23,688 nt of DNA. It comes from a virus. Position numbers and translations under genes: made by a program. Below are positions 3,005 to 14,456 of the stretch, piece by piece. How positions within the stretch are numbered: the stretch's first letter is position 1; the number at the start of each line of letters is the position of its first letter. Location of the stretch: IMG/VR virus record IMGVR_UViG_3300027896_000223, positions 1 through 23,688 of that record; one strand, given 5' to 3'. The notes below the pieces were generated by a model. That model saw only the letters and a list, made by a program, of their open reading frames with translations. It was not told the DNA's origin and made no database searches.

Positions 3005-3850
3005 TCAGGAATTTAAAAAATTTATACATTCTGTTACTATATTTTCTTTATTTTTTCTATAATCACTCTCCCAAATCACTTTTAAATCATAACCCCTTTC
3101 TTTTGCTTTTTGTATTTTAATTTCATCTTTTTTCCAAATGTCTTTAGCTTTTTCATTAATAAATTTTAACGGAATATCAGAAGATTTATATTTTTCTGGA
3201 TTTGCATGAAATTTATCTCCATTAAATTCAATAATTTTTTTAATATCTTCAACTACAAAATCAAAATTAGTTGAATGAATACCACAACTAAATTCATGAT
3301 TTAATTCTCCAAAATATACTTTTTCGTATTTAATTTTTTCGTATATTTTCCAAAATAATTCTTGTGAAATAGAAGACCAATTATTTTTATTCATTAAATT
3401 ATATATCTTAAAATGTGATTTTTCTGAAGTTTTTTTATTTCTTTCACAATATTTTATATTTCCTTCAATTTCACCATATTTTTTAATATACCAAGATAAT
3501 GAAAAAACACCTTTCATACTATTTCTAAAAGCAAGATATTCTTCATCATTTAATCTTTCTTTAATTGATAATCCTTTTTGAGCATTTTGTGCTTTTTTTA
3601 AACCATCTAATTGTAATTTTTTTCTCTCTTCTTTTTTGCTGTTCCATTCAGCATTAATTTTATTAACATCAATATTAAGATAATTTAATAAATAATCTTG
3701 ATATAACATCCCATCGTGTTTGTTAAGTATATGGGATGCAATACCAGATGCACTTTTAAGTTTAATGCCACAAATTTTACAAATATATGGACCTGTAATT
3801 TTAATTTTTACTTTAGTTTTATATCGTTTTTTTGAAGAAATTTTATTCAT
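3005..3850 (-). CDS. Vsr-like homing endonuclease with C2H2 zinc finger
   Basis: The product has 281 residues. Near the N-terminus there is a single C2H2 finger: C24xxC27, then H40 and H45, with SGIASHILNKH. The middle is K-rich with short DNA-binding-type segments. The C-terminal part resembles the very-short-patch-repair fold used by phage homing endonucleases of the EDxHD type. The key stretches are FDFVVED (D197), IIEFNGDKFHANPEKY (E208, H215), a K/D helix around D242, and a final GYDLKVIWESDY (W260-E261). Such proteins cut a recognition site and spread their own gene. It overlaps the kinase gene start by an ATGA and is followed one base later by the HD gene, so it sits neatly inside an operon. 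The exact catalytic residues are inferred from family. Confidence 0.75.
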   Translation of the reverse strand: MNKISSKKRYKTKVKIKITGPYICKICGIKLKSASGIASHILNKHDGMLYQDYLLNYLNIDVNKINAEWNSKKEERKKLQLDGLKKAQNAQKGLSIKERLNDEEYLAFRNSMKGVFSLSWYIKKYGEIEGNIKYCERNKKTSEKSHFKIYNLMNKNNWSSISQELFWKIYEKIKYEKVYFGELNHEFSCGIHSTNFDFVVEDIKKIIEFNGDKFHANPEKYKSSDIPLKFINEKAKDIWKKDEIKIQKAKERGYDLKVIWESDYRKNKENIVTECINFLNS

Positions 3851-5149: not shown

Positions 5150-5413
5150 TTAATTTTTTTTAATTTTATCTAAATCAAAAATACCGTCTGCTTCACCCAT
5201 TTCATTATAATATTTCAGACAGTCTTCTGTGGCAGGATAAAATAAAAGTCTGTCAATCACTTCTTTGTAATCTTCAAAATTTGGGTCAGTACGAAGTTCT
5301 TCTCTGAGTCTATCAGCTTCTGCGTCCCAATTTGCGGGTTCTTCCCAATATCCAACAAAATGAATAACAGTAAAATTTTCACTTTTAAAATCTTCTGGAT
5401 TTAAAGGGTACAC
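5150..5413 (-). CDS. hypothetical acidic protein, possibly N-terminally truncated
   Basis: I do not recognise this protein. It has 87 residues if the GTG at 5413 is the start; there is no ATG. It is acidic and probably helical (EEPANWDAEADRLREEL). Its start lies only 2 bases from the left inverted repeat of the tnpB element (5416-5443). Reading upstream in frame, a TAA is met at 5441-5443, inside that repeat. The insertion may therefore have removed the original start and N-terminus, leaving a GTG-started or unexpressed remnant. No obvious ribosome binding site precedes the GTG. Confidence 0.55.
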   Translation of the reverse strand: MYPLNPEDFKSENFTVIHFVGYWEEPANWDAEADRLREELRTDPNFEDYKEVIDRLLFYPATEDCLKYYNEMGEADGIFDLDKIKKN

Positions 5414-5415
5414 TA

Positions 5416-5443
5416 ACAGTTCAATAAAATCTACAAAATCTTA
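5416..5443 (+). repeat. left inverted repeat of tnpB element
   Basis: This 28-base segment matches the reverse complement of 6781-6808 at 24 of 28 positions (my alignment by eye), with the shared core AAAATCTACAAAA. It matches the solo copy at 12202-12229 in direct orientation. It probably marks the left edge of the inserted element. Confidence 0.6.
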
Positions 5444-5497
5444 CAAAAAACTATAAAAAATAATTTTTAACAAAAACCGATATTTTTATTTAATATA

Positions 5498-5512
5498 TAG
5501 TATTTATAAATA
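5498..5512 (+). promoter_or_regulatory. palindromic AT element upstream of tnpB
   Basis: The perfect 12-base palindrome TATTTATAAATA is at 5501-5512. It overlaps the 11-mer TAGTATTTATA (5498-5508), which is also found at 8164-8174 before the other plus-strand island. It lies about 20 bases before the tnpB ATG. It could be a promoter element or an operator, and no clear -33/-7 pair was found. Confidence 0.25.
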
Positions 5513-5530
5513 AGGAATGTATTTACACCC

Positions 5531-6793
5531 ATGTTAAGAGCAATTAAAATAAGATTATATCCGAATAAAGATCAACAGGCTTACATAAGTCAGTTACTTG
5601 GTTGTTATAGAAAGGTTTATAATCTTTCACTTAATTATAAAATGGAGCAACACACTTTAAGTGGCATAACAGCAAATATGAAATCAATTGGGAATGAATT
5701 TCATAATAACTGGACAAAATCAGATGAATTTCATTATTTGAATGACCATAATACAAAGGTAATGAAACAAGCAATTATCAATATGCTTGATTCTTACAAA
5801 AGATTTTTCATTAATCATTCCGGCTTTCCGAAATTTAAATCAAAACATGATAATAAACAGTCTTGTAGATTTCCATCAGAAGCAATATCAAAAAGAAATG
5901 ATTATGAATCTAATAGACTTACTTTAATTTCTCAATTAAAAGATATAAAATTCAAGTGTTCAGACGAATACAAAAAGTATTTAAATAATCATAAACAGAA
6001 TATAAGGTCAACAAGTCTCTCCAGAACAAAATCTGGTAATTATTTTCTTTCGATTTTAATAGATGGTGATTTAATGAAAACATATGGCAATTCAAGGAAT
6101 GAGATTGTTGGTATTGATTTAGGAATTAAAGATTTTATTGTTACCTCGAAAAATCAGACATTCGAAAATATTAAAATTAAAAGAAATAATCAAAAGAAAT
6201 TAGCTAAATTAAATCAAGAACTTTCAAGAAAACAAAAAAATAGTAAAAACAAAAACAAAGCAAGAATCAAATTAGCAAAATATCATGAAAAATTAAATAA
6301 CATCAAAGAGAATTATTTACATCAAGTTTCAAACCAATTACTTAACGAAAATCAAGTTATTATAATGGAAGACCTTAATGTAAATGGAATGTTACAAAAT
6401 CATCACTTAGCAAAATCAATTCAGGAATTATCACTTTCTCATTTTAAAGAAATATTAAAATACAAAGCAGAATGGACTGATAGATATATTGTTGAGGTTG
6501 ATAGATTTTATCCTTCGAGTAAATTATGTTCAAATTGTGGTTACAAAAATAATGAATTAACATTGAAAGACAGAGAATGGACTTGTCCAGTATGCAAAAC
6601 TCGTCATAATAGAGATTTGAATGCTGCAATTAATATAAAAAATGAAGGAATGAGAATAATTAAAAATAAAATATTTAAGTCAATTGACTTGAATTTAGTA
6701 CCCACCCGTTGTGGGAAATTAACGCCTTTGGAGAGCAGTCAAAAGACACTCGATGAATTAGGAAATAAAAACTACACTACTAATTTTTTGTAG
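5531..6793 (+). CDS. tnpB: TnpB, RNA-guided RuvC nuclease
   Basis: The product has 420 residues, normal length for TnpB. The N-terminal MLRAIKIRLYPNKDQQ is the usual OrfB opening. RuvC-I is GIDLGIKDF with D196. RuvC-II is IIMEDLNVNGM with E280. The zinc ribbon is C333xxC336 and C352xxC355. RuvC-III is HNRDLNAAINI with D362. All three acidic catalytic residues and all four cysteines are present, so the enzyme looks intact. TnpB uses an RNA copied from the element's right end to cut matching DNA, helping the element persist. The gene ends in TAG inside the right repeat, next to and converging on the NADAR gene. It is the only gene on the plus strand between 1 and 8192. Confidence 0.95.
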   Translation: MLRAIKIRLYPNKDQQAYISQLLGCYRKVYNLSLNYKMEQHTLSGITANMKSIGNEFHNNWTKSDEFHYLNDHNTKVMKQAIINMLDSYKRFFINHSGFPKFKSKHDNKQSCRFPSEAISKRNDYESNRLTLISQLKDIKFKCSDEYKKYLNNHKQNIRSTSLSRTKSGNYFLSILIDGDLMKTYGNSRNEIVGIDLGIKDFIVTSKNQTFENIKIKRNNQKKLAKLNQELSRKQKNSKNKNKARIKLAKYHEKLNNIKENYLHQVSNQLLNENQVIIMEDLNVNGMLQNHHLAKSIQELSLSHFKEILKYKAEWTDRYIVEVDRFYPSSKLCSNCGYKNNELTLKDREWTCPVCKTRHNRDLNAAINIKNEGMRIIKNKIFKSIDLNLVPTRCGKLTPLESSQKTLDELGNKNYTTNFL

Positions 6794-6808
6794 ATTTTTT
6801 TGAACGGT
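6781..6808 (-). repeat. right inverted repeat of tnpB element / likely omega-RNA 3' end
   Basis: Read on the minus strand this segment is 27/28 identical to 12202-12229 and 24/28 to 5416-5443. It covers the last four codons and stop of tnpB plus 15 bases beyond. In TnpB systems the RNA scaffold ends at the element's right end, with the guide taken from the flank. Here that would be the bases just after 6808. Confidence 0.6.
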
Positions 6809-6828
6809 CAATAATCATTATACCATAC

Positions 6829-7326
6829 CTAAACTTTTCCATCTATATCGTCTTTTAAAATTTCACGTACTTCCATAAGAGCTTTTCCAAGTAAATTTTG
6901 ACCTCTCCAATTCTTTTCATCAAGAATTCTATCGTCATTATGATATAACCCAATGCCCCAGATTTGATCGTAGGGACTGCTTTCAACTATTATTTTATCT
7001 CCTGTGGAAAGTAAGATTTCTTTCAATTTTGGATTTTGCCCAAACTTAGCCAAATTAACAGCTACCATAACATAATATCCTTCTTTTAACCATTTTTCAG
7101 CATTAAAATTTTTAACTTTACGTCCTAATCTTTTGCATTGATCTGGTGAAGGAGTTTTTAATATTTTTTCAGCAATTTCCATATCACCAAAATATGTTGC
7201 TTTTACCCACATGAATGCCTGTTCAGAATTAAAGAAAATTATGTCTCTATATCTGAATTTACAATCATACCAGTTTGAAAATTCTGACCCCCAAAAAAAT
7301 ACATATTTATCCGTTATTCTTTCCAT
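6829..7326 (-). CDS. NADAR (YbiA-like) domain protein
   Basis: The product has 165 residues, the full length of a single NADAR/YbiA domain. Family motifs in order: FFWGSEFSNWY (residues 10-20), FNSEQAFMWVKA (32-43), CKRLGRKVKNF (64-74), SPYDQIWGIGL (117-127) and WRGQNLLGKALMEVR (140-154). NADAR proteins act as N-glycosidases. Some remove ADP-ribose from guanine bases in DNA or act in riboflavin-intermediate repair, and phage or defence-linked versions are known to counter ADP-ribosylation. The precise substrate is not readable here. It begins 6 bases after a small membrane-peptide gene and likely shares the promoter at 7445-7474. The stop is TAG, which supports standard-code use in this genome. 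Confidence 0.88.
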   Translation of the reverse strand: MERITDKYVFFWGSEFSNWYDCKFRYRDIIFFNSEQAFMWVKATYFGDMEIAEKILKTPSPDQCKRLGRKVKNFNAEKWLKEGYYVMVAVNLAKFGQNPKLKEILLSTGDKIIVESSPYDQIWGIGLYHNDDRILDEKNWRGQNLLGKALMEVREILKDDIDGKV

Positions 7327-8341: not shown

Positions 8342-9004
8342 ATGAATAAAATTTGTGGAATATATAAAATTACATCGCCAACAGGTAAAATTTATATTGG
8401 TCAATCAAGAAATATTAATTTAAGAATTAAGTATTATAAAAATGCTTGGTGTAAGGACCAACAAAAAATTTATAATTCAATTATAAAATATGGCTGGGAA
8501 GCACATAAAACTGAAATTATCTGTGAATGTAATTTAGATGAATTGGATGATTTAGAAAAATATTACATTAATTTTTATAATACTTTTGATACTAAACATG
8601 GATTAAATTTGACTAATGGAGGTACAACAGGTAAATTATTATCTAAACAAACAAAAGAAAAAATCAGTGATATCCATAAAAATCAAATAGTGAAATCTGA
8701 AACAAGAATAAAATTAAGTTTAGCAATTAAAGGCATTAAACGTTCTTTAGAAACTATTGAAAAAATGCGAAAAGTTAAAACCGGATTAAAACATACTGAA
8801 AAAACAAAACAAAAAATTAGAGACAATAAATGTCACACATATGAAATTTATGACAACAACGCATTATTAACGCATAAATTTCATTCAAATATAAAAAAGG
8901 AATTAAAAAAATTAAATTTACCTGAATGCCTTTGTAAAACATATAGAAATAATAATAAATTACAACGTGGAAAACATAAAGGTTGGTATATAATTAAATT
9001 ATAA
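8342..9004 (+). CDS. GIY-YIG homing endonuclease with NUMOD3 repeats
   Basis: The product has 220 residues. The catalytic module has GIY at residues 6-8 and YIG at 18-20 (GKIYIGQSRN), with arginines at 23 and 28 and the metal-binding glutamate likely E72 (DDLEKYYI). After NLTNGGTTG come NUMOD3-like DNA-binding segments (LSKQTKEKISD near 100-110; GLKHTEKTKQKIRD near 150). The protein ends with a conserved KGWYI. Such enzymes make a site-specific cut and copy themselves into intron-free or intron sites. Its stop overlaps the stop of the convergent helicase gene (8999-9004). No intron or interrupted host gene is evident beside it, so it is probably free-standing. Confidence 0.9.
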   Translation: MNKICGIYKITSPTGKIYIGQSRNINLRIKYYKNAWCKDQQKIYNSIIKYGWEAHKTEIICECNLDELDDLEKYYINFYNTFDTKHGLNLTNGGTTGKLLSKQTKEKISDIHKNQIVKSETRIKLSLAIKGIKRSLETIEKMRKVKTGLKHTEKTKQKIRDNKCHTYEIYDNNALLTHKFHSNIKKELKKLNLPECLCKTYRNNNKLQRGKHKGWYIIKL

Positions 9005-12201: not shown

Positions 12202-12229
12202 ACCGTTCATAAAAATCTACAAAAAATTA
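12202..12229 (+). repeat. solo copy of the tnpB-element end repeat
   Basis: This segment is identical to the reverse complement of 6781-6808 at 27 of 28 positions and continues for three more matching bases (GTA). It has the same orientation as the left repeat at 5416-5443. No tnpB is nearby. It could be what is left of a second element, a non-autonomous relative, or a target-like site. The last codon and stop of the small gene 12227-12346 lie at and just beyond its edge. Confidence 0.65.
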
Positions 12230-12346
12230 GTAAAAAGTTTGACAAAGATACAAATATTTTTCTAAATAATCATAATTTTTCTTAAATTTTTCTGAACTGT
12301 TCAATAACCCCAAAGATTTCATATTTTCAGTAACCACTTTATACAT
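12227..12346 (-). CDS. hypothetical small protein (39 aa)
   Basis: The frame starts with an ATG that shares its A with the TAA of the upstream membrane-peptide gene (TAATG), a coupling used repeatedly in this genome. The product opens MYKVVTENMKSLGLL and continues with a charged helix (SSEKFKKNYDYLEKYLYL). It has no membrane segment. The last codons and stop fall at the edge of the solo repeat, so its natural C-terminus may have been changed by that insertion. Function is unknown. Confidence 0.45.
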   Translation of the reverse strand: MYKVVTENMKSLGLLNSSEKFKKNYDYLEKYLYLCQTFY

Positions 12347-12521: not shown

Positions 12522-14456
12522 TTACTGATTTAAAAATTTTATTACTTTATCTTCATATGAATATGATAACTTATCATTGATTTCAGTTTGTTTCAAATTC
12601 AAGCCATTTTCATTACATATTTCAAGAAAATGTACTGTGGTAATTCCATTATTATCAATAGTATGTTTAATCAATTCTTTATAAATGCCCATATTTTCAT
12701 TTAAAAGGTCTTTGGCTCTAATTTTTTCTTCCTTTAAGATACCTTCAATAATATCATCTGTTTTTTCAGTACAATAATTTAATTCTTGTGATTGTGGTGC
12801 TTCTTTTTTAATTGTTCTTGAAACAATGCCGTCCATTCCATATTTTCTAACATAACAACCAGCAGTGTCAGTTGCATTTGATATATCTGCAGATGCTCCA
12901 ATTGATTTATAATCTTCACCAAATACAAGTTCTTCAGCAACTAAGCCGCCTAAATAAATAGCAATACGATTTCTTACAAATGTTCTGTTTTCAATTGAAC
13001 TATGATTAATAACAAATCCTTCTGATAAACCAGAACTATTTACATTGATCTGTCTGGGCGGAGTTTTATATAAAATAGCATATAATAACGCATGACCTAA
13101 TTCATGAACAGTTACTAGTATTTTTTCATCTCTTGTTTTTCCTTCACGAATATTATCAATATCAAGCACCACATCCTTTTCATATCTTTTTTCTTCAATA
13201 TAAGTAACTAATTGATTATCTATAATATCAAGACACATTTTATTTAAATCATTCACCAAACATAAATATAAGAAAAATGGTAAATTACTGCCTAACAAAT
13301 TATAAACTGTTGAAATTGCGGGTCTTACACCCTGTGTTGGAAACACACCATTTCTATAGATAGCATCATAAACATTATCAGTTAAAATAATCTCAATATT
13401 ATGTTCACTTTTAACTCTATTAAGAATTAAAGCACAATTTCTTTTAATAATTTCATAATAACTTTTCTTATCCAAACAAGGATAAATCACATGATTATTT
13501 CCAAATCTTGCAATTTGCTCTGGTTTGAATTGCTTTGCAAGTGCATTTTTAATATGAATAATATTAACTCTTTTTGATAATTCATGATATATGTCAGCAT
13601 CTCTTTCACTATCTTCAACTTCATCAGCCATTGTAAATGCTTGATCAAGATTACCAGATATGAAGATAAGCAATTTTTCATATGATTTGCCTTCATTAAC
13701 ATTACCTAACTTAAGACTGCTTTCCATAATTTCCATGCGCTGTTCAAGACTCATTTTCATGATCTCTTCTGCGGAAACACTTAAATTAAGCATTTTTTTA
13801 AACCTGTTTGCAGTCCAATATGATGTTTTATATTTATAATTTTTAGGTTTCTTTTCTTTGGGTACACCATTTTTACCTTTACCTTTTTTTAATTGTTTAT
13901 TACTTGGTTCATCCTCTTCATCTTCATTTTCTCTTCTATCTGAATAATACATTTCTTCAAATAATAAATCCAGTATTTCTGCTCTACGTTGAGAATTATT
14001 CTGAAATTTACCATCAGAAAGAAGCATCCAAATATCATTGAAATACTTATTTTCAATCATTATACCAGCTTCATCAACAGTGCGATAACGTTGAATTTCA
14101 TCCAGCAGAAGTATTGCTGGTTCATTTGAATCAATACCAGAACTTTCCAAAAAATTTTCAATATTTTTTGAATAGTCATTCTTCATATCCATCTGGATTT
14201 CTATAAACTTGTCAGTATAATTTAACAATTTTACAAGATTACGCACTAAATCAGTTTTGCCCACACCTGTAATGCCCCAGAGAGAAACTATTAAAGGTCT
14301 AAATTGAAGTTCTGGAGTAAGATACCATAATGATATGCTATCAATTATCTTATCAATTACTTCATCAATTCCAATAAATTTTTCTTTAAGTGCGACTTTA
14401 ACCCCATCAAGCACTTCTCTTCTCGACTTAATTCTTTCAAGAAATTCGTTATTCAT
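12522..14456 (-). CDS. soluble AAA+ / M41 metalloprotease (Clp-type ATPase fused to FtsH-type peptidase)
   Basis: The product has 644 residues. The AAA+ part has Walker A GITGVGKT (61-68), Walker B ILLLDE (115-120), sensor-1 FISGNLD (265-271), a possible arginine finger in EQIARFGN (313-320) and a Clp-like sensor-2 TQGVRPAI (374-381). This makes it closer to ClpB/ClpX-type ATPases than to FtsH. About 100 extra residues, highly charged around 175-207, sit between Walker B and sensor-1. The peptidase part has HELGH at 451-455 and a probable third zinc ligand D524 in GASADISNATDTA, as in FtsH M41. No membrane helix is present, unlike FtsH. It probably unfolds and degrades cytosolic proteins during infection; the target is unknown. 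It has a good Bacteroidota-type promoter (14477-14506). Confidence 0.88.
   Translation of the reverse strand: MNNEFLERIKSRREVLDGVKVALKEKFIGIDEVIDKIIDSISLWYLTPELQFRPLIVSLWGITGVGKTDLVRNLVKLLNYTDKFIEIQMDMKNDYSKNIENFLESSGIDSNEPAILLLDEIQRYRTVDEAGIMIENKYFNDIWMLLSDGKFQNNSQRRAEILDLLFEEMYYSDRRENEDEEDEPSNKQLKKGKGKNGVPKEKKPKNYKYKTSYWTANRFKKMLNLSVSAEEIMKMSLEQRMEIMESSLKLGNVNEGKSYEKLLIFISGNLDQAFTMADEVEDSERDADIYHELSKRVNIIHIKNALAKQFKPEQIARFGNNHVIYPCLDKKSYYEIIKRNCALILNRVKSEHNIEIILTDNVYDAIYRNGVFPTQGVRPAISTVYNLLGSNLPFFLYLCLVNDLNKMCLDIIDNQLVTYIEEKRYEKDVVLDIDNIREGKTRDEKILVTVHELGHALLYAILYKTPPRQINVNSSGLSEGFVINHSSIENRTFVRNRIAIYLGGLVAEELVFGEDYKSIGASADISNATDTAGCYVRKYGMDGIVSRTIKKEAPQSQELNYCTEKTDDIIEGILKEEKIRAKDLLNENMGIYKELIKHTIDNNGITTVHFLEICNENGLNLKQTEINDKLSYSYEDKVIKFLNQ

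What the first reader, a model, noticed from the sequence alone, without database searches (positions are those of the whole stretch)
5416..6808. tnpB element bounded by inverted repeats, unusual for this class
5416-5443 and the reverse complement of 6781-6808 agree at 24 of 28 bases. TnpB elements of the IS605 type normally end in subterminal hairpins, not terminal inverted repeats. The right copy lies across the tnpB stop, where the RNA scaffold of such elements normally lies. The left copy may also fold or act as the recognition end.
Basis: seen in the sequence. Interest (0 to 1): 0.6.

Follow-up and report, generated by a model that had tools for sequence, protein, structure and literature searches.

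The report
Phage IS607-type tnpB-only transposon
A small jumping gene in a bacterial virus, carrying only the RNA-guided DNA cutter TnpB, has split a viral gene; its paired end repeats are real and normal for its true family (IS607, not IS605), and uninterrupted versions of the gene in related viruses show where it went in.

Summary
The inverted repeat is real (24/28; 0 of 1000 shuffles reach it) and belongs to a mobile element, but the contrast with IS605 is the wrong comparison. Related phages (L006, L211) carry the target gene uninterrupted. Removing exactly 5409-6807 (1399 bp) between two GG dinucleotides rejoins that gene in frame, and the same excision rejoins genes around sibling elements in L043, L044 and L013. 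No target duplication and insertion at GG(G) are the signature of IS607-family serine transposases. The same ends bound complete 2.7-2.9 kb elements that encode an IS607 TnpA. Published work already says that IS607 ends carry imperfect inverted repeats near, but not at, the termini and at unequal distances (PMC6188088). Here the arm starts 10 bp inside the left junction and 0 bp inside the right one. The element is therefore a transposase-less, tnpB-only IS607 derivative. Its TnpB has an intact RuvC triad. Its right end encodes a covarying reRNA core (RAGATH-18-like), and the repeat overlaps the tnpB stop. Side results: a phage TnpB clade with IS607 partners whose bacterial relatives have Y1 partners, a tnpB frame kept open through the reRNA, and a 105-bp end-end remnant at 12203-12307. 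Ordinary as to the repeat; modest interest overall.

The parts
5409..6807 (+). whole element, 1399 bp (equivalently 5407-6805; the GG core is shared)
   Evidence: excision rejoins the split gene in frame; uninterrupted orthologues in L006 and L211
5407..5408 (+). left GG core, end of the GGG target/TAM-like motif (AAAGGG)
   Evidence: GGG precedes every sibling left end seen
5419..5443 (+). left subterminal inverted-repeat arm, 10 bp inside the junction
5431..5453 (+). left-end iterons CTAC / CTTAC / CTAT at element positions 23, 32, 43; putative phased TnpA sites
   Evidence: same spacing in L044 (23, 33, 43, 53) and L160
5531..6793 (+). tnpB, 420 aa; RuvC D196, E280, D362 and Zn cysteines C333/336/352/355 conserved
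6701..6715 (+). reRNA hairpin CCCA..TGGG, replaced by GGGT..ACCC in relatives
6725..6764 (+). RAGATH-18-like reRNA core, inside the tnpB frame
   Evidence: 24 bits, below the gathering score 44.9; covariation
6781..6805 (-). right inverted-repeat arm, abutting the junction; holds the tnpB stop
6806..6807 (+). right GG core
6808..6827 (+). inferred guide (host flank) TCAATAATCATTATACCATA
   Evidence: position by analogy with ISDra2 and ISXfa1 reRNAs; inference
6808..6842 (-). 5' part of the interrupted gene (MEKFRYGIMIID..)
5150..5408 (-). 3' part of the interrupted gene (..PLNPEDFKSENFTVIHFVGYW..)
12203..12307 (-). 105-bp remnant: IS607-type left end fused to right end, no gene

Best explanation
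The feature is a non-autonomous, tnpB-only insertion sequence with IS607-family ends, in the genome of a phage. It inserted at a GGG in a small conserved phage gene. Shown by sequence: the edges, the GG cores, the split gene, and the sharing of ends with complete elements that encode an IS607 serine transposase. Inferred: a TnpA supplied in trans by such a complete element binds the phased left-end motifs and the right arm and swaps DNA at GG. TnpB, loaded with an RNA copied from its own 3' end plus host flank (reRNA), then cuts the empty GGG+flank allele. This favours recopying and keeps the element in the phage population. The inverted repeat is the shared TnpA-binding end sequence; on the right it also forms the last part of the reRNA and encodes the TnpB C-terminus.
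For: Excising 5409-6807 rejoins MEKFRYGIMIIDPLNPEDFKSENFTVIHFVGYW, which aligns without gaps to the uninterrupted MEKFTHGIMVVDPENPDDIGSDNTTVIHFVGYW of L211, including GACCC at the target; L006 is a second empty site. The same GG-to-GG excision rejoins ORFs around L043 (an Hsp20 gene, PF00011), L044 and L013. The same ends bound L012 and L013 elements whose TnpA passes the IS607 equivalog cut-off (NF033518, 184-185 bits against 110). One 299-kb phage (G003) holds two tnpB-only siblings plus IS607 TnpA genes and a full-length-type right end. TnpB of the same clade sits directly behind an IS607 TnpA in L179 and L139. reRNA core: 10 of 15 pairs with changes on both sides, against 6.4 in shuffles, 0/500. 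Arm offset 10/0 in six of eight elements, 12/2 and 16/6 in the other two. IS607 features in PMC6188088; GGG TAM of ISXfa1 in PMC10711439.
Against: NCBIfam scores this TnpB higher with the IS200 model (341 bits) than with the IS607 model (165), below both cut-offs. No TnpA is on the 23.7-kb fragment. RAGATH-18 is below its gathering score. Free folding of the 118-nt right end is no better than shuffles (z -0.96). Activity, guide use and TAM are untested.
Confidence: 0.92

Rival explanations
1. An IS200/IS605-type (Y1 transposase) tnpB element with subterminal hairpins that happens to have an inverted repeat.
For: TnpB resembles IS200/IS605 TnpBs most, and its bacterial relatives (at most 41% identical) include four next to Y1 TnpA genes.
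Against: The junctions are GG/GG with a GGG target, the ends are those of IS607 TnpA elements, clade members sit behind IS607 TnpA, and none of 80 bacterial loci had an IS607 TnpA in the held flank, so the phage clade differs in partner.
Confidence: 0.04
2. The repeats are native phage DNA (promoter or terminator elements) that flank a stationary tnpB.
For: The repeat also occurs at 12205 in an intergenic stretch.
Against: The uninterrupted genes in L006 and L211 lack the repeats. The repeats travel with elements at different sites in at least six records. The 12205 copy is itself a fused left and right end.
Confidence: 0.01
3. A domesticated, no longer mobile TnpB (regulator of the TldR kind or homing nuclease) that happens to sit between old transposon ends.
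For: No transposase in the fragment; the element splits a gene, so it may be at a dead end.
Against: RuvC and Zn residues are intact, whereas TldR-type proteins are nuclease-dead (own knowledge). Both ends and the cores are intact, and siblings at other sites show mobility of the kind.
Confidence: 0.05

Closest known systems
IS607 family (IS607, IS1535, ISC1926; PMC6188088)
   Same: GG at both junctions, (G)GG target, no target duplication, imperfect inverted repeat at unequal distance from the two junctions, phased direct motifs in the left end
   Different: no tnpA in this copy
IS607 TnpB with RAGATH-18 reRNA (ISFba1; PMC11061315) and ISXfa1 TnpB (PMC10711439)
   Same: reRNA core motif GGAG...GAUGAA..AGGAA between the TnpB domains and the right end; GGG next to the target (ISXfa1 TAM GGG)
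   Different: here the tnpB frame runs through the reRNA core; PMC11061315 reports reRNAs wholly outside the coding sequence. The TAMs reported there are AGGAG or GAGGG.
IS1341-type tnpB-only elements (PMC9956272)
   Same: only tnpB between two transposon ends
   Different: here the ends can be assigned to an IS607 partner, which PMC9956272 leaves open for the group
ISDra2 / IS200-IS605 TnpB (PMC8612924)
   Same: homologous TnpB (8bf8, E 2e-48); guide RNA overlaps the end of the tnpB gene
   Different: TTGAT target and Y1 transposase there; GG target and IS607-type ends here
Prevotella Lak phage TnpBs
   Same: 47-52% identical TnpB, in the same phage group, related reRNA core
   Different: the family inverted repeat was not seen next to the two Lak genes examined

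Membership tests
IS607 family | GG dinucleotide at both junctions, insertion at (G)GG | tested here: met
   window and four sibling elements
IS607 family | no target-site duplication beyond the core | tested here: met
   excision keeping one GG rejoins ORFs
IS607 family | imperfect inverted repeat near both ends at unequal distances; phased direct motifs in the left end | tested here: met
IS607 family | encodes or is moved by an IS607 serine transposase | tested here: inconclusive
   not encoded in this copy or fragment; elements with the same ends encode it; mobilisation in trans is inferred
IS200/IS605 family | Y1 TnpA partner and insertion 3' of a TTAC- or TTGAT-like motif without GG exchange | tested here: not met
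   GG/GG junctions; no Y1 ORF in the element
IS200/IS605 family | TnpB protein lineage | tested here: inconclusive
   closest NCBIfam model is IS200_TnpB but below its cut-off; bacterial relatives have Y1 partners
TnpB RNA-guided nucleases | RuvC D-E-D triad and Zn ribbon | tested here: met
   NF040570 280.8 bits against cut-off 100
TnpB RNA-guided nucleases | RNA-guided cleavage next to a TAM | not testable with these tools
   needs biochemistry
RAGATH-18 reRNA (Rfam RF03064) | covariance-model score at or above gathering | tested here: not met
   24.0 bits against 44.9
RAGATH-18-like reRNA | covarying core helices at the right end | tested here: met
   with hand-chosen segments

The most novel reading that the evidence does not exclude
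In large phages a lineage of TnpB close to the IS200/IS605 type has switched to IS607 ends and transposase, and keeps its protein reading frame open straight through its own guide-RNA scaffold up to the transposon end (dual coding). The same ends are exchanged between elements with unrelated TnpBs, so ends plus TnpA and TnpB plus reRNA behave as separable modules.
Probability: 0.5. Interest if true: 0.45.

Novelty: new member of a known kind. Interest (0 to 1): 0.33.

Why it matters
It settles, with empty sites, the edges and target of a tnpB-only phage element and assigns it to an IS607 partner; for tnpB-only (IS1341-type) elements the partner is often unknown (PMC9956272). It also gives a set of phage elements with defined edges, flanks and guides, in which retention by RNA-guided cutting of the empty allele and trans-mobilisation could be tested.

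Tried and rejected
IS605-type interpretation: rejected on junctions and partner. Native-repeat interpretation: rejected by the empty sites. Rfam gathering threshold on the right end: no family passes. Free-energy folding of the right end: not better than shuffles for 118 nt, z -2.5 for 168 nt; replaced by comparative counts. Exact right-end pattern in 84,980 prokaryote genomes: no match, which does not exclude diverged copies. Whole window against named phages by megablast: no match. The 105-bp copy at 12203-12307 was first read as a transposed MITE, but its two flanks lie about 1 kb apart in relatives, so it is more likely a deletion scar between two insertions. A regular expression for TnpA upstream of relatives missed true cases and was replaced by tblastn and NCBIfam.

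Full report
Observation. The reported arms are real: 5416-5443 and the reverse complement of 6781-6808 match at 24 of 28 bases. None of 1000 dinucleotide-preserving shuffles of the two flanks reached 24 (mean 18.1, maximum 22). The core motif occurs three times in the window against 0.11 expected. The gene between them is a 420-aa TnpB whose stop lies in the right arm.

Edges. The short gene to the left (5150-5413, minus strand) is truncated. A relative in L006 is a complete 94-aa ORF. The missing start lies to the right of the element at 6808-6842 (MEKFRYGIMIID). Removing 5409-6807, so that one GG remains, gives an in-frame MEKFRYGIMIIDPLNPEDFKSENFTVIHFVGYW. A second related phage (L211, on the 299-kb contig G003) has the uninterrupted MEKFTHGIMVVDPENPDDIGSDNTTVIHFVGYW with GACCC at the insertion point, aligning without gaps. 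The repeats are absent from both empty sites. Because the target is GGG, the exact cut is ambiguous by one or two bases; I use 5409-6807. The same rule rejoins ORFs around siblings in L043 (an Hsp20 gene; the upstream piece, read from the identical insertion in L018, matches PF00011), L044 (an ORF that reads like a MazG-type protein by eye; Pfam did not recognise the fragment) and L013.

Family. Insertion at GG(G) with no other duplication is what is reported for IS607 elements, which also have imperfect inverted repeats near the ends at unequal distances and short direct motifs in the left end (PMC6188088). All are met here: the arm starts 10 bp inside the left junction and 0 bp inside the right junction in the window and in L043, L044, L012, L013 and L128 (12/2 in L132, 16/6 in L160), and CTA/CTTA motifs lie about 10 bp apart (element positions 23, 32, 43). 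The same ends bound complete elements in L012 and L013 (2718 and 2909 bp), whose TnpA passes the IS607 equivalog cut-off. The large phage G003 carries two tnpB-only siblings together with IS607 TnpA genes and the right end of a full-length-type element. Mobilisation of the window element in trans is therefore plausible but inferred.

TnpB and guide RNA. RuvC D196/E280/D362 and the Zn cysteines are intact. Rfam's RAGATH-18, which PMC11061315 identifies as the reRNA of IS607 TnpBs, matches 6725-6764 at 24 bits, below gathering. Ten phage sequences with the same core (the window among them) show 10 of 15 pairs with changes on both sides, against 6.4 in shuffles (0/500 as high) and at most 6 for slid partners. 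A broader set gives a similar result. The segments were cut and placed by hand, so these counts lean towards the structure. The host flank from 6808 would be the guide, and GGG the adjacent motif, as in ISXfa1 (PMC10711439); this is inference. The likely role is cutting the empty allele so that the element is recopied, as proposed for ISDra2 (PMC8612924).

Wider context. A tree of 55 TnpBs puts the window in a 31-row phage-only group (support 99/30, so not firm as a clade) that includes the Lak phage TnpBs; 8 rows have an IS607 TnpA nearby. Bacterial relatives are at most 41% identical; none of 80 had an IS607 TnpA in the held flank, and four of five tested neighbour ORFs were Y1 transposases. 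This suggests a change of transposase partner, but the root is arbitrary and sampling was by similarity. The TnpBs of L012/L013 are only about 20% identical to the window's yet share the ends and the right-end-encoded C-terminus TNFL. In 26 phage loci the tnpB frame is open through the reRNA core in 19, the other two frames in none (21 stops against 95 and 99). The loci are related, so this is not 19 independent events, but it points to selection on the frame. PMC11061315 describes its reRNAs as wholly outside the coding sequence.

The third repeat copy. At 12203-12307 (minus) a left end is fused to a right end in 105 bp. The left-end part is 83% identical to the L013 left end, and the fusion point shows the 9-nt microhomology ACTAATTTT. 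One flank is the C-terminus of a gene conserved in L006, L009 and L013; the two flanks lie about 1 kb apart in relatives. It is best read as the scar of a deletion between two such insertions.

Verdict. The repeat is genuine and marks a real element, but it is what IS607-type ends look like. The element is a new member of a known kind.

Noticed in passing
window 12203-12307 (-): 105-bp fusion of an IS607-type left end and right end; flanks about 1 kb apart in relatives L006/L013, so probably a deletion scar that removed most of a conserved gene (its C-term VKNVFLRDLIKDKKLA remains)
   Followed up: partly
L128-L179 and window 6681-6793: tnpB reading frame open through the reRNA core in 19 of 26 phage loci, other frames in 0 of 26
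   Followed up: partly
L012 1806-2453 and L012/L013 TnpB: complete IS607 elements with a very divergent 377-378 aa TnpB and, in L012, an extra ORF that reads like a GIY-YIG protein by eye (no Pfam or NCBIfam match) share the window element's ends
   Followed up: partly
window 8342-9004 (+) and 3005-3850 (-): other probable selfish genes: a GIY-YIG homing endonuclease (PF01541, phrog_314) and an endonuclease-like protein (phrog_22677; weak match to an endonuclease family)
   Followed up: no
L012 5823-6264: GOLLD RNA, 181 bits, on the same 13.8-kb phage contig as two tRNAs and the complete IS607 element
   Followed up: no
window 6829-7326 (-): NADAR-domain protein (PF08719) next to the interrupted gene, conserved in L006
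   Followed up: no
window 12522-14456 (-): protein with AAA ATPase and M41 (FtsH-like) peptidase domains encoded by the phage
   Followed up: no
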